NCBI RefSeq assembly: GCF_000208385.1
Contig: NC_015436.1
Location: 1,364,001 to 1,428,000, forward strand
From: Parasphaerochaeta coccoides DSM 17374
GTDB lineage: Bacteria > Spirochaetota > Spirochaetia > Sphaerochaetales > Sphaerochaetaceae
Reading direction: 5' to 3'
DNA: 64,000 bases
The notes under the pieces were generated by a model. That model did not search any database. It was not told the origin of the DNA and saw nothing but the letters and a program-made list of their open reading frames with translations. Made by a program: the position numbers and the translations under genes. Below are positions 51,485 to 63,471 of this stretch, in pieces. Each line of letters begins with the position of its first letter. Positions within the stretch are counted from its first letter, which is position 1.

Positions 51485-52366
51485 ATGGCTTACCAACCCC
51501 TTCCCTTTCTTCCCCTTTCGCCTGACCTGTATGAAAAAATCCCCCTGCCTGCGCAAAAGGTGATGGAACAGGGCGGAACCGAACTGCCTGGAACCGGTGA
51601 GTATGAACATTTCAGCCGGGAAGGAACCTACTTCTGCAACCGTTGCCATTCTCCGCTCTATCGGTCATCGGATAAATTCGACTCCGGCTGCGGCTGGCCA
51701 TCCTTTGACGCTGAAATCCCCCATGCAGTGGAAAGGATTCCTGACCGTGATGGACAGAGAATTGAAATCCGCTGCGCCACCTGCGGCGGACATCTCGGCC
51801 ATGTCTTTAGTGGCGAAGGTTTCACATCGAGGGACGTGCGCCATTGCGTGAATTCCCTCTCCCTCCATTTCGCGGCATCTCCACCTCTGGGGAGGGCATT
51901 CTTCGCCGGTGGATGCTTCTGGGGAGTAGAAGATCTTTTCAGCCGACTGGAAGGAGTCACCGACGTGACGAGCGGATATTCCGGAGGCTATGTGGAAAAC
52001 CCCTCCTATGAGGATGTCTGCCGTGGTTTGACCGGACACCTTGAAACCGTCCGCGTCACCTATGACATTGACCGTCTTTCCTACAAAGATCTGATCCACT
52101 GGTTCTTCGAGATACATGATCCTACCCAGACAGACGGGCAGGGACCGGACATTGGCGAGCAGTATGAGTCAGCTGTCTTTTACCGGAACCGTCATGAATA
52201 TGACATTGCCTTGGAAGCAATACGGGAGTTGGAGGAAAAAGGCTACGACATAGCCACCCGGCTCCTGCCTGCCGCGCCGTTCTGGGAGGCTGAGGACTAC
52301 CATCAGGACTATTATGAGCGCACAGGTTCCCGGCCATACTGCCATGCCCATGTGAAGCGGTTCTGA
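51485..52366 (+). CDS. msrBA: Fused methionine sulfoxide reductase MsrB-MsrA
   Basis: Repairs both methionine sulfoxide isomers. 293 residues: MsrB domain first (1-135), zinc cysteines 51/54 and 97/100 and catalytic Cys121 (RHCVNSLSL); then MsrA (136-293) with catalytic Cys144 in GGCFWGVED and the later FEIHDPTQTDGQGPDIGEQYESAVF. The B-then-A order occurs in spirochaetes, Firmicutes and Helicobacter-type fusions in different orders. No signal peptide. SD GGAGG. Divergent from the old yellow enzyme gene. Confidence 0.95.
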   Translation: MAYQPLPFLPLSPDLYEKIPLPAQKVMEQGGTELPGTGEYEHFSREGTYFCNRCHSPLYRSSDKFDSGCGWPSFDAEIPHAVERIPDRDGQRIEIRCATCGGHLGHVFSGEGFTSRDVRHCVNSLSLHFAASPPLGRAFFAGGCFWGVEDLFSRLEGVTDVTSGYSGGYVENPSYEDVCRGLTGHLETVRVTYDIDRLSYKDLIHWFFEIHDPTQTDGQGPDIGEQYESAVFYRNRHEYDIALEAIRELEEKGYDIATRLLPAAPFWEAEDYHQDYYERTGSRPYCHAHVKRF

Positions 52367-52652: not shown

Positions 52653-53474
52653 ATGCGCTTGATGGATTCACCCATATTCCTTGCTTTCCTGGCGACTCTT
52701 TTCACCTGGGGCATGACGGCCCTGGGCGCCGCGTTGGTATTTTTCTTCAAAGATATCAAGAAATCCATGCTCAACACCATGTTGGGATTTGCCTCCGGTG
52801 TCATGATTGCCGCCAGCTTCTGGTCCCTGCTCAACCCTGCCCTGGAAATGGCTCCGGATACAAGCTCCCTCCCGGCATGGCTGGTGGTAGGCATTGGCTT
52901 CATGCTCGGCGGAATCTTTCTTTGGGGAGCTGACAAGCTGCTGCCCCACCAGCACTTTTCCGCTGACAAGAACGCCGTTGAGGGATTGCCCAGCCATCTG
53001 CGCCGGAGCATCCTCCTGGTACTTTCCATTACCCTGCACAATATCCCGGAAGGTCTGGCCGTAGGGGTGGCGTTTGGAGCAGTCGCGAATGGGCATGATA
53101 CGGCCACCATTGCAGCGGCTCTCTCGGTGGCCATAGGAATCGGCATCCAGAACTTTCCGGAGGGAGCCGCAGTGTCCATCCCTTTGAGACGGGAAGGCTT
53201 GAGCCGCTTCCGCTGTTTCATGTACGGACAGGCTTCCGGCATAGTTGAGCCGATTTCCGCCGTCCTGGGAGCCTTTTTGGTTACCCAAATGCGCTCGATA
53301 CTCCCCTACGCGCTGGCATTTGCCGCCGGAGCCATGATATTCGTCGTCATTGAAGAACTCATACCCGAAGCGCAAATCAGGGATCCCAAGGAATACAGCA
53401 AGGCGCACTTTGTCACTGCGGGAGCGATGATCGGCTTCACGGTGATGATGATTCTCGATGTCGCGCTGGCGTGA
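52653..53474 (+). CDS. ZIP family metal transporter (ZupT/GufA-like)
   Basis: Zinc or other divalent metal importer, 273 residues, eight helices. Helix 4 and 5 metal motifs HNIPEGLAVGVAF and QNFPEGAAVSIPL, and EELIPEA in helix 7, are the ZIP signatures. The His-rich loop (PHQHFSADKN) is short. GAGGAG before the ATG. It converges with the YihY gene. Confidence 0.9.
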   Translation: MRLMDSPIFLAFLATLFTWGMTALGAALVFFFKDIKKSMLNTMLGFASGVMIAASFWSLLNPALEMAPDTSSLPAWLVVGIGFMLGGIFLWGADKLLPHQHFSADKNAVEGLPSHLRRSILLVLSITLHNIPEGLAVGVAFGAVANGHDTATIAAALSVAIGIGIQNFPEGAAVSIPLRREGLSRFRCFMYGQASGIVEPISAVLGAFLVTQMRSILPYALAFAAGAMIFVVIEELIPEAQIRDPKEYSKAHFVTAGAMIGFTVMMILDVALA

Positions 53475-53580: not shown

Positions 53581-55179
53581 TTACAGGCGGTCAAGCAGAT
53601 TGTCGATAGTATAGTTCCCCAAGCGGGATACGCCGCCCTGAAGCAACTCGCGGCTGATTGCCTCGCCAGCCGTGTCAGATTCCTCTGTCTTCCCGCTTTC
53701 CCGTAATCTCTTTTTCTCACCCGCGGCAAGGCCATAGACAGCCTCGACTACCTCACGCACCTTCATGCTGTCCAGAGGACGCGCAGGCATGAACATGGTA
53801 CGGTTGTTGTTTGTAGCGACTATGTAGTGGAGGGACGTGAGGAGTTCAATGTAAGAAAACAGCCGTCGGTCAGGAATAATCAGGAGATCACCCAGCTCGC
53901 GCGATGAGGAAGAACCCTTGCCTTCCCTATAGTTGCTGCCAATCAGCATCAGCACATCAAGCGCCTCGGCAATCTGGACGGAAGGAGAATTAGTCAGACC
54001 AACACGCTTCCCGTCAGGATGAAACTGATGCACGTAGGAGATTTCCACGGCACTCAAGATGATGACCCACATCAGGTACATCCAGAGAAGGAAGAAGAAT
54101 ATTGATGCGATGGAACCATAAATCACCGAATACGTGACGGCTGTCCCCATCATCCACGTCATGCCGTCCTTGGTCAAAGAGAAAAGAACCGCCCCGATGC
54201 CGGCGCCCAGAGCCGCGCTGGAAAGCCTCACCTTGGTGTTGGGAACAGTGAAGATGACAAGGAAGAATATGACGAACATGATTACCCACTGGAGGAAATC
54301 CTTGGAGAAAAATTGGAAGCCTGCCACTGAACCCCCGTTCATCGAGGCAATGATCGGAGTCATGATAGGTTGGATGCTGATGTAAAGACCTAACAGAAGA
54401 ATGCCGATGATCAGGAAACTGATGGAATTGGTAAAACGGCGGATAGGATTACGGTTGAGGGCGACATGGTATATCTGGTTGATGATAGTCCATACCTTGT
54501 TCACCAGCAAGATGGATGTGAACAGGAATGAAATGATGCCGAAGATTCCCAAACTGGTGGCGTTCCCGGTGAAAGTCGTGAGCAAACCAAGAAGCTGCGC
54601 TCCTGCTTCAGGACCGAAAAACTCCACTGTCAGGTCATTGAGAAATGTGATGAAGGGCTGTATCGCTCCCATGGGCGCAAGGAACATCAGAATGACCGTG
54701 ACTAAGGGAACCACTGCCATCAAGGACGAATAGACCATGCCGCTTGCCATGATGGCGACTTGGTCCCTGTTTATCCGGTACCACACGGAGGCAAGGAACT
54801 TACCCATCGTCTGAAGGAGGTAAAGCACTTTCCCCATGAAGTCTGAAAATGAAGCGTGCGCTGAATCCTGTGTCCGGGTATTGGAGGGAATACCGTGCGT
54901 CCCACCGTCCTTTGCGTCCTTTCCTCCTGTATCTTCCTGATAGCGGGTAATCACTCCCAAGGGCGTGGTTTCCGTGCTGAGGGTTCCCGACCGTATCCGG
55001 GAAGGCTTGTCAGGGGAAACAGGTTCCCCTGCCGCCTTTTGAACGGCGGCAGGGACCTGGGGAACTTCCGGCGAGGGTGCAACCTCGCCGACCGGCATGC
55101 CATGCTTGTCGTCCTTGGCTTCCCGGAATGGAGGCAGGTTCTTAATCCATGAAAGAATCCGTGCAGGCCGGTTGCTCAT
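53581..55179 (-). CDS. YihY/virulence factor BrkB family membrane protein
   Basis: 532 residues. A long hydrophilic, Pro/Ala/Ser-rich N-terminal tail (1-115) precedes the six-helix YihY core (about 125-400: MASGMVYSSLMAVVPLV, FGIISFLFTSILLVNKVW, WMYLMWVIILSAVE). A C-terminal soluble part (about 420-532) includes a winged-helix-like stretch. Once annotated as ribonuclease BN, but the family has no proven enzymatic role. It lies 6 bases after the lipase-like gene and is probably co-transcribed. Confidence 0.85.
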   Translation of the reverse strand: MSNRPARILSWIKNLPPFREAKDDKHGMPVGEVAPSPEVPQVPAAVQKAAGEPVSPDKPSRIRSGTLSTETTPLGVITRYQEDTGGKDAKDGGTHGIPSNTRTQDSAHASFSDFMGKVLYLLQTMGKFLASVWYRINRDQVAIMASGMVYSSLMAVVPLVTVILMFLAPMGAIQPFITFLNDLTVEFFGPEAGAQLLGLLTTFTGNATSLGIFGIISFLFTSILLVNKVWTIINQIYHVALNRNPIRRFTNSISFLIIGILLLGLYISIQPIMTPIIASMNGGSVAGFQFFSKDFLQWVIMFVIFFLVIFTVPNTKVRLSSAALGAGIGAVLFSLTKDGMTWMMGTAVTYSVIYGSIASIFFFLLWMYLMWVIILSAVEISYVHQFHPDGKRVGLTNSPSVQIAEALDVLMLIGSNYREGKGSSSSRELGDLLIIPDRRLFSYIELLTSLHYIVATNNNRTMFMPARPLDSMKVREVVEAVYGLAAGEKKRLRESGKTEESDTAGEAISRELLQGGVSRLGNYTIDNLLDRL

Positions 55180-55185
55180 TACGCA

Positions 55186-56115
55186 TCACACCTCGACACG
55201 ACGTCGAAGCCAATCCAAGACATAAGCGTACACATCTTCCTTGTCAATCTCGTTAAGAATCTCATGACGCCCGCCGGGGAACAGCTTGAGCGTCACATCG
55301 GAAACATTCGCGTCATGATACATCCCGTAGACGGCGCGGACACCTCTGCCAAATTTCCCCACAGGATCCTTGTCCCCGCTGATGATAAGCAACGGAAGGT
55401 CACGGGGAACCTGCGCGGTCACATGTCTGTCGTTCACATAGGCGATTCCCGTGAGCAAATCCGCGAAGAAGCCAGATGTGCAGACAAACCCGCAATTATC
55501 GTCTGCCACATACTCATCCACCGCATGGATGTCACGGCTCAGCCAGTCAAAAGCCGTGCGGGCAGGAGCGAATCTTCGGTTATAACCGCCGAAGGACAGC
55601 TTATCCAGCCTTTTGGAGACATGATGGCTGCCATACCGCCGCACTTCACCACGGGCAAGTGCCAGTCCAAGACGACCGGCAATGCCCTGTCCGGGAGCTG
55701 TGCCACAGATGATGATGCCGCTGTAGAAAGAAGGATGCTTCACCATGGCGGTACGGGCAAGGAACGAACCCATGCTGTGTCCGAAAAGGAACACCGGTAC
55801 ATCAGGATAGTCCGAGGAAACCGCATAGCTGATCTCCCAGGCATCCTCGGCGACCCGGAACCACCCGTCGTTGTCAGAAAACCATCCCCGGTTCTCAGGG
55901 CGGTCAACACTCAGCCCATGCCCGCGATGGTCATGGGCACAGACAATGAAACCCTGTGAGGTCATGAAGGAAGCAAAGTCCTCATACCGGGCACTATGTT
56001 CCGCCATACCGTGCAGGATATGGAGCAAACCCACAGGATTTCTGCGGGATCGTGGTTCCCAGATGCGACAGGCCAGCCTGAAACCGTCACTGGTATTCAT
56101 GTACCGTACTTCCAT
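55186..56115 (-). CDS. Alpha/beta hydrolase, monoacylglycerol-lipase-like
   Basis: 309 residues of the serine aminopeptidase/Hydrolase_4 type. Nucleophile Ser114 in FGHSMGSF, acid Asp in ISGDKDPVG and His in PGGRHEI form the triad; ILHGMAEHSARY and HDHRGHGLS are the oxyanion region. ATG at 56115 after TGGGA; a start 4 codons earlier is possible. Likely a lysophospholipid or monoglyceride lipase. Confidence 0.85.
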   Translation of the reverse strand: MEVRYMNTSDGFRLACRIWEPRSRRNPVGLLHILHGMAEHSARYEDFASFMTSQGFIVCAHDHRGHGLSVDRPENRGWFSDNDGWFRVAEDAWEISYAVSSDYPDVPVFLFGHSMGSFLARTAMVKHPSFYSGIIICGTAPGQGIAGRLGLALARGEVRRYGSHHVSKRLDKLSFGGYNRRFAPARTAFDWLSRDIHAVDEYVADDNCGFVCTSGFFADLLTGIAYVNDRHVTAQVPRDLPLLIISGDKDPVGKFGRGVRAVYGMYHDANVSDVTLKLFPGGRHEILNEIDKEDVYAYVLDWLRRRVEV

Positions 56116-56272
56116 ATCTATTCCCATCCTATGTTAAAAGAAACTATGCCCATAGGTTCTGTAAGTATTTATATAAGTCTAATATCATATTAGACATAAT
56201 ATGCGCATCTGGCAAGAAGCGAATAATCAGTTTTGACAGTTTTTGCCAAGAAAGGCAGAGCTGTGCTACTGT

Positions 56273-56809
56273 ATGTCCATGACACGCCTCCTGATAGCTT
56301 CCGACCTTCATGGAAATGCCGATTCATTGAAGACTCTGTATGATGTCGCCGTCCGGACAGGATGCGCCGCCATCCTGATGGCCGGGGATCAATGTCCAGG
56401 AGCCAGCGCAACCTTTGCCACAGCTCTGGCCTCGCCTCCCATCCCTCTGGTCATGGTCAGGGGGAACTGCGACGGCTCATGGGAATACGACGGCTACCTG
56501 CTGCGTTATCCTCCCCGTTTCAGGATTTATGACTGGGACGGACGCACCATACTTCTGACCCATGGCGATGCATTCACCTCGCCGGAGATGACCGGAACAA
56601 CCTTGAAGCCGGGAGACCTCTTTGTCACCGGCCACACCCATGTACCCCTCTTGGTGAAAGAGCCGCAGGGATGGTTGCATCTTAATCCTGGTTCGGCATC
56701 CCGCGGCAGGGGGAAAAGTGACCCTTCATATGCGCTGGCGGACGGGGACGGCATCACGATATACGTGCTGGAAACGGGAAAGCCCATAGCCAGTATTCCT
56801 TGGCCGTGA
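56273..56809 (+). CDS. YfcE/MJ0936-family metallophosphoesterase
   Basis: 178 residues; metal motifs IASDLHGN, MAGD, GNCD, THGD and GHTH in order give a small cyclic-phosphodiesterase-type enzyme. The last part HLNPGSASRGRG is also typical. The ATG at 56273 (or 56279) has only a weak SD. Monocistronic, divergent from the lipase-like gene. Confidence 0.85.
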   Translation: MSMTRLLIASDLHGNADSLKTLYDVAVRTGCAAILMAGDQCPGASATFATALASPPIPLVMVRGNCDGSWEYDGYLLRYPPRFRIYDWDGRTILLTHGDAFTSPEMTGTTLKPGDLFVTGHTHVPLLVKEPQGWLHLNPGSASRGRGKSDPSYALADGDGITIYVLETGKPIASIPWP

Positions 56810-56901: not shown

Positions 56902-57071
56902 CATCCAAAATCACCAAATAACCCGAAAGTATTATATGCTTTTCATGCAAAATAATACCTTTGGGTAATAGCTTTCTGCCATCACCACGTTTATACTACT
57001 TTATTAATTACTACCATATGCGTAAGCTGGCATGTCATCATCTTCTTCATGAAGAAAGGAAAAGACACTAT

Positions 57072-57097
57072 GAGAGAGAGAGAGAGAGAGAGAGAGA
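57072..57097 (+). repeat. (GA)13 dinucleotide repeat ahead of the lipoprotein gene
   Basis: Thirteen GA units. The first G completes an ATG at 57070-57072 that has AAAGGA ten bases upstream. From that ATG the repeat is read as Arg-Glu units and stops at TGA 57109-57111, twelve bases before the ATG at 57123. With one unit fewer or two more, the ATG at 57070 would be in frame with the lipoprotein. Confidence 0.95.
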
Positions 57098-57122
57098 ACG
57101 ACGAAATCTGAGAGAACTGCGT

Positions 57123-59531
57123 ATGAGCAAATCTAGCAGACCAGGTTTTGTGGTTCTTACAACCATTCTGATACTACTTGCCGCCCTTATTTCATGCGAC
57201 AGCAAACTGAATGTTTCAAATACAAACGAAGTACGTTTCACTTCCGAGATAGGCCGCAAGGCCACGGCAGACTCCGAATGGCAAGCCGATGATGAAGTCG
57301 GCATCTACATGGTAGCTCATGATGCCCTGACAGCTACTGCCGCCTCAGAACGTGCAAACAAACTCTACACGGCTGACACAGCCTTCCAGACTTCCGGCTT
57401 CACTCCTGCTACCGTTGGTGACACCTTGAAGTGGGATGACATCTCCACCCCTGCCATCACACACTTTGACTTCATCGCCTATTATCCTTACGTGTCTTCC
57501 ATCGCCAATACCACCGCCCTACCCATAAATGTCTATCCAGGTTCCGGGGAACAGGATACCGGAAAGGCTGACTTCCTGTGGGGACGCACCGACAATGTAC
57601 AGAACAATACCTCAACGGTGCATCTGAAGCTTGACCATATGCTCTCCCGCCTGATTGTCAACATCTCTCCCAGCACGACCGTTGATGCTACGGCTATCAA
57701 TGATGCCACCGGTGGATTTACTGCTACGGTCAAAGGCTTGAACACGCAGAGCGCAATCAACCTGAATGACGGAACCTTGGGCACGACGGATACGAGCGCA
57801 TCTATTCTCATGAAGGACATTTCCGACACCCTTACGGCTACGGAAAGAACCGAGGGAAAGCGCAGGTTCGAGGCTGTGCTGATACCTGTGGACAACACTT
57901 TTGCTCTGGCTAACGTGAGCCTGGAGTTTACCCTGAGCGGTGGTGCTGGCGCTGGTACATACACATGGGCAGCGGATTCCGTAGCGACCTCTGATCAAGG
58001 CAAGATTCACTTTGACAAAGGCAAGCAGCATGTCTACAACATGACGCTCAATACGTCTGATGAAGAAGTCGCCGTTGCCGCCATTGAGATTGAGATTGGG
58101 GATTGGGATGAAAGTGACGGCGGGAACTGGGGAGCCGTCAAGGCATACCGGCTCACTTTTGATGACAACGATGCCACGAACGGAAATGCACCGGGACAGA
58201 TACTCGCTCATGAAGGAAGTCAAATCACACTGCCGGGTCCCGGAGACCTGGAGAAAAACATCCATTACTTCTATGGATGGAATACTGATCCTGCTGGCAC
58301 TGGAACCCAGTATGCCGCTGGTGACACATTAGAGATTCTTGACCAGGATGTGACTCTGTATGCACGGTGGTTGGTGAAGATTAAATCAGTCTTCACCGGA
58401 TACAGCCATACGATGATACTGAAGGAGGACGGGACTCTCTGGGCGACTGGAAGCAACTATTATGGTCAACTGGGCTTGGGTTACAGCGGCATTCTAACCA
58501 ACAGAAGCACACCCGAACAAGTCACATCCACATCCGAGGGTTCTCTCCCTGTTATCGCGTCTATCTCCGCCGGAGGCTATCACACGATGATCGTGGATGA
58601 GGATGGGAGTCTCTGGGCGACTGGATCCAATGAGGACGGACAACTAGGTTTAGGTGACAGCGGCTCTGCGACCGACAGAAGTACGCTCGAGAAAGTTCCG
58701 TCCATGGGCACTGATGTCGCAGATGTCTTTGTCGGAGGCTATCACACGATGATCCTGAAGAAAAACAATACACTCTGGGCAATAGGCTGGAATAGTTATG
58801 GCCAACTGGGCGATGGTACTTCAGGCGGCGATCCGGACTTCAAAAGCACACCCGTAGAAGTTTGGGATTCTCCCGATGGTCAGGTGAAAATGACTGATGT
58901 CGCGGCCGTATCCATCGGAGACGAACACACGATGATTCTGAAGAAGGACGGCACGCTCTGGGGGACAGGATTCAACTATTGGGGTCAACTGGGCGATGTC
59001 ACTACGATCAACAGAAGCATTCCTGTGCAGGCCACGTCCATGGGGACTGATGTCGAGGCCGTCTCTGCCGGATATTCTTTTACGATGATCCTGAAGAAAA
59101 ACAATACACTCTGGGGAGTAGGAGAGAACGCGGACGGACAACTGGGTGACAACACTAGGGCCCCCAGAAAGACTCCCGTACAGGTCATGGAGGCTGAAGG
59201 GGTCGGATTCATGACTGATGTCAAGGCTGTCTCTGCCGGATACTACTATACGATGATTGTGAAGAAGGACGGCACGCTCTGGGCGACTGGAGACAACTGG
59301 GCTGGTCAACTGGGTGACGGCACTACGACCGACAGAACTACTCCCGTGCAGGTCAAGGGTGCTGGAGGGGTCGGGTTCATGACTGATGTCAAGGCCGTCT
59401 CTGGCGGAGACGGCCACACGATGATCCTGAAGAATGACGGCACACTCTGGGCGACTGGATTTAACCATTATGGTCAACTGGGTGACGGCACTACGACCGA
59501 CAGAACTACTCCCGTGCAGATAATTCTCTGA
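57123..59531 (+). CDS. Large surface lipoprotein: fimbrillin-like, InlB-type and seven RCC1 repeats
   Basis: 802 residues from the ATG at 57123. Signal peptide with lipobox LISC (Cys25). About 35-333: a region resembling fimbrillin/Mfa-like proteins of Bacteroidetes (VRFTSEIGRKAT, FDFIAYYPYV, LDHMLSRLIVNIS). About 340-418: a Listeria-Bacteroides (InlB/Flg_new) repeat (YFYGWNTDPAGTGTQYAAGD, VTLYARW). About 420-802: seven RCC1-type repeats built on HTMILKKDGTLWATG and YGQLGDGTTTDRTTPVQ, giving a beta-propeller. Likely a surface adhesin or binding protein. Translation may be controlled by the GA repeat just upstream. The frame is open back to 56961, but no SD supports an earlier in-frame start. 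Confidence 0.8.
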   Translation: MSKSSRPGFVVLTTILILLAALISCDSKLNVSNTNEVRFTSEIGRKATADSEWQADDEVGIYMVAHDALTATAASERANKLYTADTAFQTSGFTPATVGDTLKWDDISTPAITHFDFIAYYPYVSSIANTTALPINVYPGSGEQDTGKADFLWGRTDNVQNNTSTVHLKLDHMLSRLIVNISPSTTVDATAINDATGGFTATVKGLNTQSAINLNDGTLGTTDTSASILMKDISDTLTATERTEGKRRFEAVLIPVDNTFALANVSLEFTLSGGAGAGTYTWAADSVATSDQGKIHFDKGKQHVYNMTLNTSDEEVAVAAIEIEIGDWDESDGGNWGAVKAYRLTFDDNDATNGNAPGQILAHEGSQITLPGPGDLEKNIHYFYGWNTDPAGTGTQYAAGDTLEILDQDVTLYARWLVKIKSVFTGYSHTMILKEDGTLWATGSNYYGQLGLGYSGILTNRSTPEQVTSTSEGSLPVIASISAGGYHTMIVDEDGSLWATGSNEDGQLGLGDSGSATDRSTLEKVPSMGTDVADVFVGGYHTMILKKNNTLWAIGWNSYGQLGDGTSGGDPDFKSTPVEVWDSPDGQVKMTDVAAVSIGDEHTMILKKDGTLWGTGFNYWGQLGDVTTINRSIPVQATSMGTDVEAVSAGYSFTMILKKNNTLWGVGENADGQLGDNTRAPRKTPVQVMEAEGVGFMTDVKAVSAGYYYTMIVKKDGTLWATGDNWAGQLGDGTTTDRTTPVQVKGAGGVGFMTDVKAVSGGDGHTMILKNDGTLWATGFNHYGQLGDGTTTDRTTPVQIIL
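59303..59520 (+). repeat. Exact 49-base direct repeat inside the RCC1 part
   Basis: Bases 59303-59351 and 59472-59520 are identical, encoding the end of RCC1 repeats 6 and 7. Recombination between them would delete or add exactly one repeat (169 bases apart, which is not a multiple of three, so such an event would also shift the frame). Confidence 0.9.
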
Positions 59532-59601: not shown

Positions 59602-61542
59602 TCAGAAAGCGTCCGGCTCCCGTTCTCCATCAATGGTGTCCACAGCATCGTAGACATGGCGCATACGTCGGTATGCATCCCTCAATGGACGGATGGACAG
59701 CACATCATGCCAAGATCCGTTTTCGGTAGGTATTATGGAGAAGTACGGCGAAAAATCAGCAGCAGTACAGTCGTCATCGGATCCGTTAAGACGTTTGTCC
59801 AACCTTTCCTGGATACGCCGCGCCCGACGACCGAGAAGAAGCACGCGGGCATAGGAGACATCATGTCCGACGATTGAACTGATGAAACCGGGCATGAATC
59901 GATGTGCCATCATCCGGATACCCAAGAAAGGAGCATGAAGAAGTTTGAAGGTTCCCAAGCTCGCGGAAATCCTGCCCGACGCTCCCCTCCTTCCCCAGTA
60001 ATAAATCTGTGCGCCGAAACAAGGATCCAGTCCCATGGTCTCGCAGCCGTAACGAACTGATTCATCATGAACCACCCAGGCAGCAGTCTTATTCACGCTC
60101 CCCCTCTGGAGAGCAGGCTGGATTACTCCGGCCATGAACGAACCGCCATAGCCCGTCATGTCAACAAGTGCCTGCCCACGGGCAGAGCGTATATCGTAGG
60201 GTCCTAGCTCAAGACCGCGTACCGAGAAAGCAAATTCCTTGTGCCCGTAGGCTTGTGCCGCGGCATCGATACCTCCCGCAAAACCAATCGCCCTGTTCTT
60301 GCACAGTGCTATGTCACGGAGCAAACGGGCAGCGAACACGACGAAGGATTCTCCGGCAGAAATGAACGGCGCATCATGAAAGGCTCCAGCCTCCATTCCG
60401 TGTCTCACCCAGCCCAGCATACCCCCGGCGGAAACCGGATCCATCCCCTGCTCCACACACACAGCAAGAAGGGAACGAACAATGTCAGGGTCGAAAATTC
60501 CCTGATGGGAGCCTAACATGATGGCCTCGGAGAAACCAGGTTCATTCTGGCTGGCCGGGGATGCGATATCAGGTAATAGGCGGGAGAATATGGTATAGCG
60601 TACCTGCCCATGAAGGCGTAACTGCTCCTGTCCCCCCAAGTATCTCAGCCTGGGGTCGGCACTGTAGGTGAAATTGTTGATGCTGACCGTACCGGTGGAA
60701 ACGGAATCAGTTACTTCGACGGCGGAACCATACCGGGCAAGGGCGCGGCAGACAGGATTAAGACGGATTCGACGGCGCAGCCTCTGGAAATTGGCGGTAA
60801 AGGCTTTTCTGTCGGCGGCAGGAATCCGCACGCCATCCTCCGCAGTGGAAGGTCGGGCGCTTATGCTGATAGCCTTGATATTCTTCAACCCCATTACCGC
60901 TCCCAGGCCCCCCCGCCCTATGCTCTGCGCCTGGCAGACCAGAGAGGCGCAGGCAACTCCATGTTCCCCCGCCGCTCCTATAGACAGCACCGTTACATTG
61001 GCACAGGCTCCCAGCGCATCATCCATGGCCGCGGTCGTGGCTTCATAGTACTTGTCAGCGTACATGAAACTGACACCCTTCTCGTCAATGACAATGACCG
61101 AGGAACGATGGAGGCGACCGGATAAAACCAGTGCATCGTAGGAACAGAAGCGAAGGAAACGGCCAAAGGCGGTATCACTGTAGGCCACTGAAATCCGTCT
61201 CGTCACCGGAGAGCGGGTCACAACAGAAAAACCTCCGTCCATGTACTCGTAGCCGGTAATCATTCCGCAGGCGAATACCATGGGGTTGCCCTGCTCATAG
61301 CGGGCTGTGACCGTAGCGGTATCCCGTACATATTTTTCGTATAACGCCAGGGCAAGCAGGCGTCCTCCAGCGCAGACTTCCAGCAACGGAGACGCAATGG
61401 GATCAATGCGCCATGAACGGGAATCCAGGTCAATGACAAGGCATCGTCCCTCACGTTCATGGGGAGGAACCACCTGCCGGGAACTACCCTGGAGGGATGG
61501 CGTATCATCAACCTGATAGTCTTCATAGGGGGACATGGTCAT
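59602..61542 (-). CDS. Aldehyde ferredoxin oxidoreductase-family protein lacking the usual iron-sulphur cysteines
   Basis: 646 residues, starting at ATG-ACC-ATG 61542. AOR family marks: GRGGLGAVMGLKNIKAIS (209-226), a GSHQGIFDPD-type block (344-353), DPVSAGGMLGW (368-378) and GLELGPYDIRSARGQALVDMTGYGGS (443-468). Family members carry a C-x-x-C-x-x-x-C cluster before the GS(N/H)xGI block; here the aligned stretch (about 312-328, GQVRYTIFSRLLPDIAS) has no cysteine. A late cysteine (about 500-508) remains. Tungstopterin binding is possible but electron transfer by the usual 4Fe-4S route is not. The upstream frame to 62100 is shadow of the kinase gene. Confidence 0.8.
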   Translation of the reverse strand: MTMSPYEDYQVDDTPSLQGSSRQVVPPHEREGRCLVIDLDSRSWRIDPIASPLLEVCAGGRLLALALYEKYVRDTATVTARYEQGNPMVFACGMITGYEYMDGGFSVVTRSPVTRRISVAYSDTAFGRFLRFCSYDALVLSGRLHRSSVIVIDEKGVSFMYADKYYEATTAAMDDALGACANVTVLSIGAAGEHGVACASLVCQAQSIGRGGLGAVMGLKNIKAISISARPSTAEDGVRIPAADRKAFTANFQRLRRRIRLNPVCRALARYGSAVEVTDSVSTGTVSINNFTYSADPRLRYLGGQEQLRLHGQVRYTIFSRLLPDIASPASQNEPGFSEAIMLGSHQGIFDPDIVRSLLAVCVEQGMDPVSAGGMLGWVRHGMEAGAFHDAPFISAGESFVVFAARLLRDIALCKNRAIGFAGGIDAAAQAYGHKEFAFSVRGLELGPYDIRSARGQALVDMTGYGGSFMAGVIQPALQRGSVNKTAAWVVHDESVRYGCETMGLDPCFGAQIYYWGRRGASGRISASLGTFKLLHAPFLGIRMMAHRFMPGFISSIVGHDVSYARVLLLGRRARRIQERLDKRLNGSDDDCTAADFSPYFSIIPTENGSWHDVLSIRPLRDAYRRMRHVYDAVDTIDGEREPDAF

Positions 61543-61710: not shown

Positions 61711-63471
61711 ATGACACATCGAACTGAAGCAGGGAATAAGGTAGTATGGGCTGCCGTGTTGGAGAAGACGGGTCGTCTGCTCACCGTCACGGTCGAAGGA
61801 CAAGCCGTGGAAGCCCCTTATGCGTGTAGTGGACTGGATGCCCTGCGCCTTGCTGCACGCAAGGACAAGGCTTTGGACGCCCTGCTGAAAAATTCTGGAT
61901 ATCATGACAATCCCATAGTCGCCATCTTGGCGAACAATGAGCTGCTTCCCTTGTCCGGACGACTCAGGGCGAACTGCGTCCTCACTCCTGTGCGTCTTTA
62001 CAGCGAACATGGCAAGAGGGTCTACCGCCACAGCATCTGTTTCCTGCTGAGCAGAGCCGCACACGAGCTTTTTCCCGGACGCCGCTTGGTCATAGGACAT
62101 TCCCTTGGCGACGGCTACTACTTCTCATTCGATGATGAACAATCCGTCCCCTCCATGGATATCAGAAAGCTTTCGGAGCGGATGCAGGTCATTGTCGAAG
62201 CTGCTGAAAGTGTGGAGAACATTCATCTTTCCTACCAGCAATCAATGGACTACTTCACTGCCATGGGTTTTACGCAGACCCGCAGCATCCTTGAATACCG
62301 CAACGAGCCCTTGATCAGCCTGTACCGTTCCGGCTCCTATGTGGACATTGCCTACGAGCCGCTGGTGTACAATACGTCAATCATGGCGTTGTGGGAGCTT
62401 AAGCCTTACGGCAGCCGCGGCATGTTGCTCCGCTACCCCCGTTCCATTGACTTCCACACCCTTCTTCCCTGGAGGGACAATCCTCTGCTTTTTTCCGTGT
62501 TCACCGAATACAAGAAACGGGGCATAATCCAAGGCGTGAGCAGTCTGGGCGAGTTGAACAAGGTCTGCGGGACAGGGGACATCCGTTCCTTTATCCGTCT
62601 CTCTGAAACACTTCAGGAAAGCAAGATATCAGCAATAGCCGACCAGATACACCGCAGGGGAACAGTCCGGGCAGTATTCATTGCCGGGCCTTCTTCATCC
62701 GGCAAGACGACCTTTGCCCAAAAGCTGGGCATCCATCTCCAAGTTGCTGGTTACTCAACCGTCAAGGTGTCGCTGGACAACTACTATGTCCCGCGTGACC
62801 AAGTGCCGCTGGACGAGTTCGGAGAGAAGGATTATGAGGCGTTGGAAGCACTGGACACCGCAGGAATCAGGAATGATATCACCGCTCTTTGCCGAGGGGA
62901 GAGCGTCGTCCTTCCGCGTTTCAGTTTCAAGGATAGCAAGCGGTTCACCGATGGGCCGGCAATCACGGTTGATGCTTCGACACTTCTGATCATCGAAGGA
63001 ATACATGGCCTCAACCCCGCTTTGCGCACAGGTCTGGAGGATAACCAGGTGTTCCGTGTTTATATCTCCGCCCTGACGCAGTTGAACCTGGATGATCACA
63101 ACAGAATCAGCACGACGGACAACAGGATTCTCCGGCGGCTGGTACGGGACAAGAGGACGCGCCATGTCGATGCAAAGATTACCTTGGGCATGTGGTCAAG
63201 CGTGGAAAGGGGGGAACGCAGGCATATCTTTCCCTATCAGAACAATGCGGATGCCATGTTGAACAGTGCGCTTGACTACGAACTGGGGGTGCTGGCTCCA
63301 TTCGCCGAGCCTCTGCTCCGTGCGGTGAAACCACAGGATGGCAAGGCTTACACCATTGCCCGGCGGCTTCTCGCGTTCCTCAAGAATGCTTATCCCATCC
63401 AGGAAAGTCTTGTTCCCGGAGATTCGTTGCTTAGGGAGTTCATAGGAGGAAGCGAGTTCCATGCGGAATGA
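61711..63471 (+). CDS. Nucleoside (uridine-type) kinase with N-terminal TGS and ThrRS-like second additional domain
   Basis: 586 residues in three parts: a TGS-like domain (about 20-95), a threonyl-tRNA-synthetase-like additional domain (about 100-260, with GHSLGDGYYFSFD, cf. the HxxxH-containing ThrRS editing-associated fold), and a uridine kinase/phosphoribulokinase domain (about 318-586) with P-loop GPSSSGKT (326-333), VSLDNYYVPRDQ and a lid region RRLVRDKRTRH. This fusion is known as 'nucleoside kinase' in spirochaetes and Clostridia. Probably phosphorylates uridine/cytidine. SD AGGAG but 10 bases away. Confidence 0.88.
   Translation: MTHRTEAGNKVVWAAVLEKTGRLLTVTVEGQAVEAPYACSGLDALRLAARKDKALDALLKNSGYHDNPIVAILANNELLPLSGRLRANCVLTPVRLYSEHGKRVYRHSICFLLSRAAHELFPGRRLVIGHSLGDGYYFSFDDEQSVPSMDIRKLSERMQVIVEAAESVENIHLSYQQSMDYFTAMGFTQTRSILEYRNEPLISLYRSGSYVDIAYEPLVYNTSIMALWELKPYGSRGMLLRYPRSIDFHTLLPWRDNPLLFSVFTEYKKRGIIQGVSSLGELNKVCGTGDIRSFIRLSETLQESKISAIADQIHRRGTVRAVFIAGPSSSGKTTFAQKLGIHLQVAGYSTVKVSLDNYYVPRDQVPLDEFGEKDYEALEALDTAGIRNDITALCRGESVVLPRFSFKDSKRFTDGPAITVDASTLLIIEGIHGLNPALRTGLEDNQVFRVYISALTQLNLDDHNRISTTDNRILRRLVRDKRTRHVDAKITLGMWSSVERGERRHIFPYQNNADAMLNSALDYELGVLAPFAEPLLRAVKPQDGKAYTIARRLLAFLKNAYPIQESLVPGDSLLREFIGGSEFHAE

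What the first reader, a model, noticed from the sequence alone, without database searches (positions are those of the whole stretch)
59602..61542. AOR-family protein without the 4Fe-4S cysteine cluster
The protein keeps several AOR blocks over its full length, yet the stretch where AOR enzymes have C-x-x-C-x-x-x-C (residues about 312-328) contains no cysteine, and no C-x-x-C is seen anywhere. Loss of the cluster would stop normal electron transfer to ferredoxin. It could be a redox-independent pterin protein, a structural relative, or a new function.
Basis: partly seen in the sequence, partly recalled or inferred. Interest (0 to 1): 0.6.

Follow-up and report, generated by a model that had tools for sequence, protein, structure and literature searches.

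The report
Tungsten-enzyme relative stripped of cofactors
One family of spirochaete-relative bacteria (Sphaerochaetaceae) keeps, nearly always at the same place in the genome, a gene descended from a tungsten aldehyde-oxidising enzyme that has lost the tungsten-cofactor site and, many times over, the iron-sulphur site too, yet natural selection still preserves the protein, so it must do some other, still unknown job.

Summary
In detail: the 646-aa protein (59602-61542, minus) matches both AOR domains over its length and has no C-x-x-C anywhere. No frameshift hides one. The tungstopterin site is gone as well: R76, R182, T243, E313, D338, the G-x-C-H448 segment and C494 (P. furiosus numbering) are all missing. 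The genome has no detectable MoaA, MoaC or MoeA. The gene is not an oddity of this genome. Homologues occur in 130 of 139 genomes of its family (Sphaerochaetaceae), mostly single-copy, and in most genera in the same gene order (uridine kinase / AOR-like / alpha-beta hydrolase / BrkB). All 113 sequences examined lack the G-x-C-H segment. Only 8 of 111 full-length copies keep all four cluster cysteines; 26 keep none, lost independently several times. dN/dS is 0.05-0.10, even in cysteine-free lineages. The clade is sister to canonical AORs of other Spirochaetia, many of which sit with ferredoxin or iron alcohol dehydrogenase genes. The predicted fold is still AOR. Best reading: a cofactor-free descendant of an AOR, under selection for a non-redox role; that role is inferred, not shown. 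I found no description of it in the papers searched.

The parts
59602..61542 (-). CDS of the cofactor-free AOR-like protein (646 aa; AFOR_N residues 32-228, AFOR_C residues 254-573)
   Evidence: purifying selection in relatives
60559..60609 (-). Residues 312-328 (GQVRYTIFSRLLPDIAS): place of the lost C288-x2-C291-x3-C295 cluster motif
60025..60027 (-). Asp506, at the place of the fourth cluster ligand Cys494 of P. furiosus AOR
60139..60147 (-). Approximate place of the deleted N-R-G-x-C-H448 active-site segment (here ...DMTGYGGSF...)
   Evidence: gap at Pfu 445-448 in 113 of 113 AOR-like copies, present in the canonical AORs
60649..60657 (-). Asp296-Pro-Arg298, nearly invariant in the AOR-like clade (candidate new functional or structural residues)
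   Evidence: D 0.97, R 0.98 (genus-weighted)
60187..60195 (-). Asp450-x-Arg452, nearly invariant in the AOR-like clade; next to the ancestral Tyr427 active-site position
   Evidence: D 0.98, R 0.98
61711..63471 (+). Divergent conserved neighbour: uridine-kinase-like protein (586 aa)
56243..56809 (+). Neighbour: YfcE-like metallophosphoesterase, convergent to the AOR-like gene
   Evidence: its place fits the conserved gap of about 500-700 bp in relatives, inferred
55186..56127 (-). Conserved neighbour: alpha/beta hydrolase (Hydrolase_4, lysophospholipase / monoacylglycerol-lipase type)
53581..55179 (-). Conserved neighbour: YihY/BrkB membrane protein
52653..53474 (+). Conserved neighbour: ZIP zinc transporter

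Best explanation
The protein is a vertically inherited descendant of a tungsten aldehyde:ferredoxin oxidoreductase that has become a cofactor-free protein of AOR fold. In the ancestor of Sphaerochaetaceae the gene, which was probably once linked to ferredoxin and Fe-alcohol dehydrogenase genes, lost the tungstopterin site. Later the [4Fe-4S] ligands wore away, separately in several genera: often Cys494 first, then the C-x2-C-x3-C motif. The window's protein is at the end point, with no ligand left. It cannot do AOR redox chemistry. It is kept for another job that needs the AOR fold and a small set of conserved residues (D296, R298, D450, R452). My choice of mechanism is that the vacated cavity binds a small anionic or carbonyl metabolite (an ancestral-substrate-like ligand) and the protein acts as a non-redox binding or regulatory protein (a pseudoenzyme). 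Shown by computation: homology, loss of both sites, family-wide retention, purifying selection in relatives, repeated Fe-S loss, predicted fold. Inferred: absence of cofactor in the cell, ligand binding, regulatory role. The confidence given is for the cofactor-free, selected descendant; the binding/regulatory role by itself I put at about 0.4.
For: Both AOR domains present, one AOR-family gene in the genome. Ligand and active-site residues lost in the whole clade: G-x-C-H448 gap 113/113, R76 kept in 1/113, T243 and E313 not conserved. MoaC, MoaA (Mob_synth_C) and MoeA_N not found in G000; found in 11, 11 and 2 of 139 family genomes. Homologue in 130/139 family genomes, mostly single copy. Conserved gene order in most genera. 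Monophyletic with SH-aLRT 100, sister to canonical AORs. Cys states: 8 with all four, 54 with three, 26 with none, rest partial, against 45/45 canonical with four. At least 7 changes on a reduced tree, and a single cysteine-free clade rejected, p-AU 2.9e-7. dN/dS 0.05-0.10 for pairs with enough divergence, including cysteine-free pairs g14 0.105 and g13 0.063, in the range of the neighbouring genes. Distances correlate with those of the syntenic neighbours (rho 0.67-0.78), as expected for vertical descent. The window copy keeps 45 of the 51 clade-conserved positions. AF2 model pTM 0.84, best PDB match 1aor, TM 0.75/0.80.
Against: No biochemical or expression data. Absence of Moa/Moe genes is not proof: three family genomes with canonical AORs (G022, G027, G121) also show no MoaA/MoaC/MoeA hit, so scavenging or undetected synthesis is possible, or those assemblies are incomplete. 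No close relative of the window species is held, so dN/dS could not be measured in its own lineage, which has a long branch (1.31). The AF2 model comes from a shallow alignment that includes canonical AORs, so it leans towards the AOR fold. The conserved C-x2-C-x3-C in genera g2, g11 and g21 shows that a metal site still matters in part of the clade. Nothing here tests ligand binding or regulation.
Confidence: 0.78

Rival explanations
1. It is a new enzyme: the AOR fold has been re-used for catalysis without tungstopterin, with D296/R298/D450/R452 (in some genera plus a three-cysteine metal site) forming a new active site.
For: Strong purifying selection; a few polar residues nearly invariant although between-genus identity is only about 23%; the C-x2-C-x3-C motif kept in 32/32 g11 copies whose median pairwise identity is 37%.
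Against: D428/R430 (Pfu numbering) are also conserved in canonical AORs and may only hold the fold; no substrate is suggested by the neighbourhood; no new conserved catalytic triad or metal site is shared by the whole clade.
Confidence: 0.3
2. It still binds a pterin or another organic cofactor in a changed way (redox-independent pterin protein).
For: G341-L342-D343 of the first pterin motif and the GRGG loop are largely kept; a few family genomes carry MoaA and MoaC.
Against: R76, R182, D338, D489 and the G-x-C-H448 segment are lost, and the genome has no detectable MoaA, MoaC or MoeA. The MoaA/MoaC-bearing genomes are not those that keep the cysteines: several of them have cysteine-free, broken or no AOR-like copies.
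Confidence: 0.08
3. It is a decaying relic on its way to a pseudogene.
For: Fast divergence (between-genus identity 23%, neighbours 35-63%); a broken copy in G081 (three ORFs) and no detected copy in nine family genomes.
Against: Retained with an open frame in nearly all 130 genomes with a homologue; dN/dS 0.05-0.10; 45 of 51 clade-conserved positions kept in the window copy.
Confidence: 0.06
4. The cysteines are displaced or removed by a frameshift or sequencing error.
For: None found.
Against: Other frames hold no C-x2-C-x3-C; the clade profile runs through one frame without stops; independent cysteine-free orthologues exist in many genera.
Confidence: 0.01

Closest known systems
Aldehyde:ferredoxin oxidoreductase (AOR; tungsten-containing oxidoreductase family, WOR; P. 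furiosus AOR, PDB 1aor)
   Same: Both Pfam domains (PF02730, PF01314), predicted fold (TM 0.75/0.80), GRGG and K-N-x-K motifs, G-L-D and Y-D-x-R motifs.
   Different: No [4Fe-4S] ligands, no R76, T243, E313 or H448, no tungstopterin genes detected in the genome, no linked ferredoxin.
Canonical AOR subtype of other Spirochaetia, often next to ferredoxin and/or iron alcohol dehydrogenase genes (G143, G163, G167, G429 and others)
   Same: Sister group of the AOR-like clade (SH-aLRT 99/100), full-length profile match; iron alcohol dehydrogenase is still nearby in Sphaerochaetaceae genera g6, g9, g15, g19 and g20.
   Different: Keeps all four cluster cysteines and, in nearly all, N-[RK]-G-[GA]-C-H; one locus is linked to moaA/moaC/moeA-like genes (L217).
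Benzoyl-CoA reductase BamB (PDB 4z3w)
   Same: AOR fold used for chemistry other than aldehyde oxidation.
   Different: BamB is a tungstopterin enzyme (established knowledge); here both cofactor sites are gone. Weaker match (E 5e-19 by fold, TM 0.67).
'Orphan molybdoproteins' of organisms without Moco biosynthesis (PMC6147048)
   Same: Molybdo/tungstoprotein homologue in genomes without the Moco pathway.
   Different: That survey found mostly DMSO-reductase and xanthine-oxidase families and no sequence feature that marks the orphans; here the cofactor residues are visibly lost across one clade.

Membership tests
AOR / tungsten oxidoreductase family (by descent) | AFOR_N and AFOR_C domains over the length | tested here: met
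   E 7.7e-42 and 6.7e-22, both above curated cut-offs; 1aor E 6e-36
AOR / tungsten oxidoreductase family (by descent) | AOR three-dimensional fold | tested here: met
   AF2 model pTM 0.84; Foldseek 1aor E 3.6e-27, TM 0.75/0.80; a model, not a solved structure
Functional AOR enzyme | [4Fe-4S] ligands C288-x2-C291-x3-C295 and C494 | tested here: not met
   0 of 4 in the window protein; 45 of 45 canonical AORs have all four
Functional AOR enzyme | Tungstopterin and substrate contacts R76, R182, T243, E313, Y427, H448 | tested here: not met
   Window: G, Q, S, S, Y, deleted; only Y427 kept
Functional AOR enzyme | Host makes the pterin cofactor (MoaA, MoaC, MoeA) | tested here: not met
   No hit in G000, a single-contig genome at 99% completeness; scavenging not excluded
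Functional AOR enzyme | Bound W or Mo and aldehyde oxidation activity | not testable with these tools
   needs purified protein
Sphaerochaetaceae AOR-like clade | Conserved gene order and monophyly with the other members | tested here: met
Sphaerochaetaceae AOR-like clade | Loss of the G-x-C-H448 segment and of R76 | tested here: met
   113/113 and 112/113; window copy lacks both
Pseudoenzyme | Catalytic residues lost while the gene stays under purifying selection | tested here: met
   residues; dN/dS 0.05-0.10 in relatives, not measurable in the window's own lineage

The most novel reading that the evidence does not exclude
A whole bacterial family has turned a tungsten oxidoreductase into a cofactor-free protein with a new, conserved function, either a new catalytic activity built in the emptied cavity or a ligand-sensing role. 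Repeated independent loss of the Fe-S cluster gives a natural series from four cysteines to none.
Probability: 0.55. Interest if true: 0.78.

Novelty: new variant of a known kind. Interest (0 to 1): 0.6.

Why it matters
A 2026 classification of tungsten oxidoreductases reports very little variation in the residues that hold the tungstopterin and the [4Fe-4S] cluster (PMC13328260), and a molybdenum survey left open whether 'orphan' molybdoproteins use any metal, having found no marking sequence feature (PMC6147048). Here is a clade of over 100 orthologues in which the pterin site is gone throughout and the cluster has been lost in steps, several times, while selection stays strong. It offers a testable case of a large cofactor enzyme turned into a cofactor-free protein. 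It also warns that genes matching aldehyde ferredoxin oxidoreductase models in Sphaerochaetaceae should not be read as tungsten-dependent aldehyde oxidation in metabolic models.

Tried and rejected
Frameshift or displaced cysteines: rejected. Recent pseudogene: rejected for the clade by dN/dS and conservation. A link between Moco genes and cysteine retention: none seen; MoaA/MoaC genomes include cysteine-free copies (G004, G006, G017, G079), a broken copy (G081) and three- or four-cysteine copies (G131, G093). Co-transcription with the alpha/beta hydrolase: not supported, median gap about 600 bp and only one pair within 50 bp; in the window a phosphodiesterase and an RCC1/fimbrillin-like gene on the other strand lie between them. 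RNA genes in the gap: none found by ARAGORN or Rfam in the loci scanned. A first scan of genome contigs with the single protein found no relative; one alignment was too diverse to scan with; a tighter alignment found 15, of which 11 were titled Spirochaetes, Spirochaetales, Sphaerochaetaceae or Sphaerochaeta. The AU test on the 109-row tree did not finish; it finished on 35 rows. Six literature searches gave no description of this clade; most subscription journals are not held.

Full report
Check of the observation. The ORF at 59602-61542 (minus strand) gives a 646-aa protein with AFOR_N and AFOR_C over residues 32-573 and P. furiosus AOR as best solved relative. It has 13 cysteines but no C-x-x-C. 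The stretch aligned to the cluster motif has no cysteine, and other frames hold no motif there.

What else is lost. I rebuilt most of the 1aor sequence from printed alignments and verified the numbering on known residues. In the window protein R76 is Gly, R182 Gln, T243 Ser, E313 Ser, D338 Val, D489 Glu, C494 Asp, and the G-x-C-H448 segment is deleted; Y427, G341 and D343 are kept. So both the tungstopterin and the iron-sulphur site are gone. The genome (G000, 2,227,296 bases, one contig) has one AOR-family gene and no MoaC, MoeA_N or MoaA C-terminal domain. From its size I take it for Sphaerochaeta (Parasphaerochaeta) coccoides; that is memory, not a test. The family name Sphaerochaetaceae rests on record titles of orthologues ('Sphaerochaetaceae bacterium', 'Sphaerochaeta sp. 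Phil3').

A family-wide gene. A tblastn search finds a homologue in 130 of 139 genomes of the same family, and AFOR_C in 125, nearly always once. I fetched about 120 loci. In most genera the AOR-like gene sits beside a divergent uridine-kinase-like gene, with an alpha/beta hydrolase and a BrkB protein downstream on the same strand and nifS/nifU-like genes beyond the kinase. The same genes flank it in the window, apart from nifS/nifU, which were not found there. Pairwise distances of the AOR-like protein follow those of its neighbours (rank correlation 0.67-0.78), which fits vertical inheritance.

Graded loss. In 113 AOR-like sequences the G-x-C-H448 segment is always missing and R76 is kept once. 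Of 111 full-length copies, 8 keep all four cluster cysteines, 54 keep the C-x2-C-x3-C motif without Cys494, 26 have none and 23 are partial; 45 canonical AORs all keep four. Within genus g16 the state runs from four to none, and in g2 two of 13 have lost all, which alone shows repeated loss. On a 35-row tree at least seven changes are needed, and one single cysteine-free clade is rejected (p-AU 2.9e-7). In g11 all 32 copies keep the three cysteines at a median pairwise identity of 37%, so there a metal site is still under selection.

Origin. Among 395 genomes drawn from the class, the best matches outside the family are canonical AORs with all four cysteines and, in nearly all, the active-site histidine. 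They often lie next to ferredoxin and/or iron alcohol dehydrogenase genes, in L217 also near moaA, moaC and moeA-like genes (gene identities there read from sequence). The AOR-like clade is monophyletic (SH-aLRT 100) and sister to them, with depth 2.08 against 0.62 substitutions per site. The iron alcohol dehydrogenase still lies near the AOR-like gene in g6, g9, g15, g19 and g20. I infer descent from an alcohol dehydrogenase-ferredoxin-AOR module.

Selection and fold. dN/dS is 0.05-0.10 in pairs with enough divergence, including the cysteine-free genera g13 (0.063) and g14 (0.105), close to neighbouring genes. The window lineage has no close relative to measure. The window copy keeps 45 of 51 clade-conserved positions. 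An AF2 model (pLDDT 76, pTM 0.84) matches 1aor best (E 3.6e-27, TM 0.75/0.80); the alignment behind it was shallow and held canonical AORs.

How it probably works. AOR chemistry is excluded unless unknown residues hold a cofactor. Residues nearly invariant in the clade are D296, R298, D450, R452, G344 and G504. I propose a non-redox protein whose vacated cavity binds a small ligand, acting as a binding or regulatory pseudoenzyme. The ligand and the role are inference. The main rival is a new catalytic activity.

Caveats. Genomes G022, G027 and G121 carry canonical AORs yet no MoaA/MoaC/MoeA hit, so lack of these genes is weak evidence by itself. Some MoaA/MoaC loci appear to carry a shorter MoeA-like gene that the MoeA_N model would miss (L037, L038, L040, L042, read from sequence only).

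Literature. PMC13328260 describes 92 clades of tungsten oxidoreductases and says that the cofactor-coordinating residues vary very little; the word stem 'spiroch' does not occur in its main text. PMC6147048 describes orphan molybdoproteins without Moco synthesis, found no sequence feature that marks them, and calls for tests. Six full-text searches found no account of this clade.

Noticed in passing
window 56961-59531 (+): 856-aa protein combining a fimbrillin-like domain, a Listeria-Bacteroides repeat and a run of RCC1 repeats, lying between the AOR-like gene and the conserved phosphodiesterase/hydrolase pair.
   Followed up: partly
G022 (L047, L048), G121 (L100, L101), G027 (L054): Sphaerochaetaceae genomes with canonical AORs but no detected MoaA, MoaC or MoeA_N; source of the pterin unclear (incomplete assembly, scavenging or unknown genes).
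   Followed up: partly
L032-L042 (MoaC loci of 11 family genomes): MoaA and MoaC occur in exactly the same 11 of 139 genomes while MoeA_N is found in only two (one shared); several loci instead carry a shorter MoeA-like reading frame.
   Followed up: partly
L059 (G081, genus g13): The AOR-like gene is split into three ORFs, so it looks broken in this genome, which does have MoaA and MoaC.
   Followed up: no
L131-L162 (genus g11), L105-L115 (genus g21): All copies keep C-x2-C-x3-C but have lost the fourth ligand Cys494; a three-cysteine metal site seems to be under selection.
   Followed up: partly
L225:3337-5247 (G394): A very divergent AOR relative (branch length 3.1) with rearranged cysteines beside a canonical AOR.
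   Followed up: no
window 51485-52366 (+): Reading frame that looks like a fused methionine sulfoxide reductase MsrB-MsrA (from sequence only).
   Followed up: no
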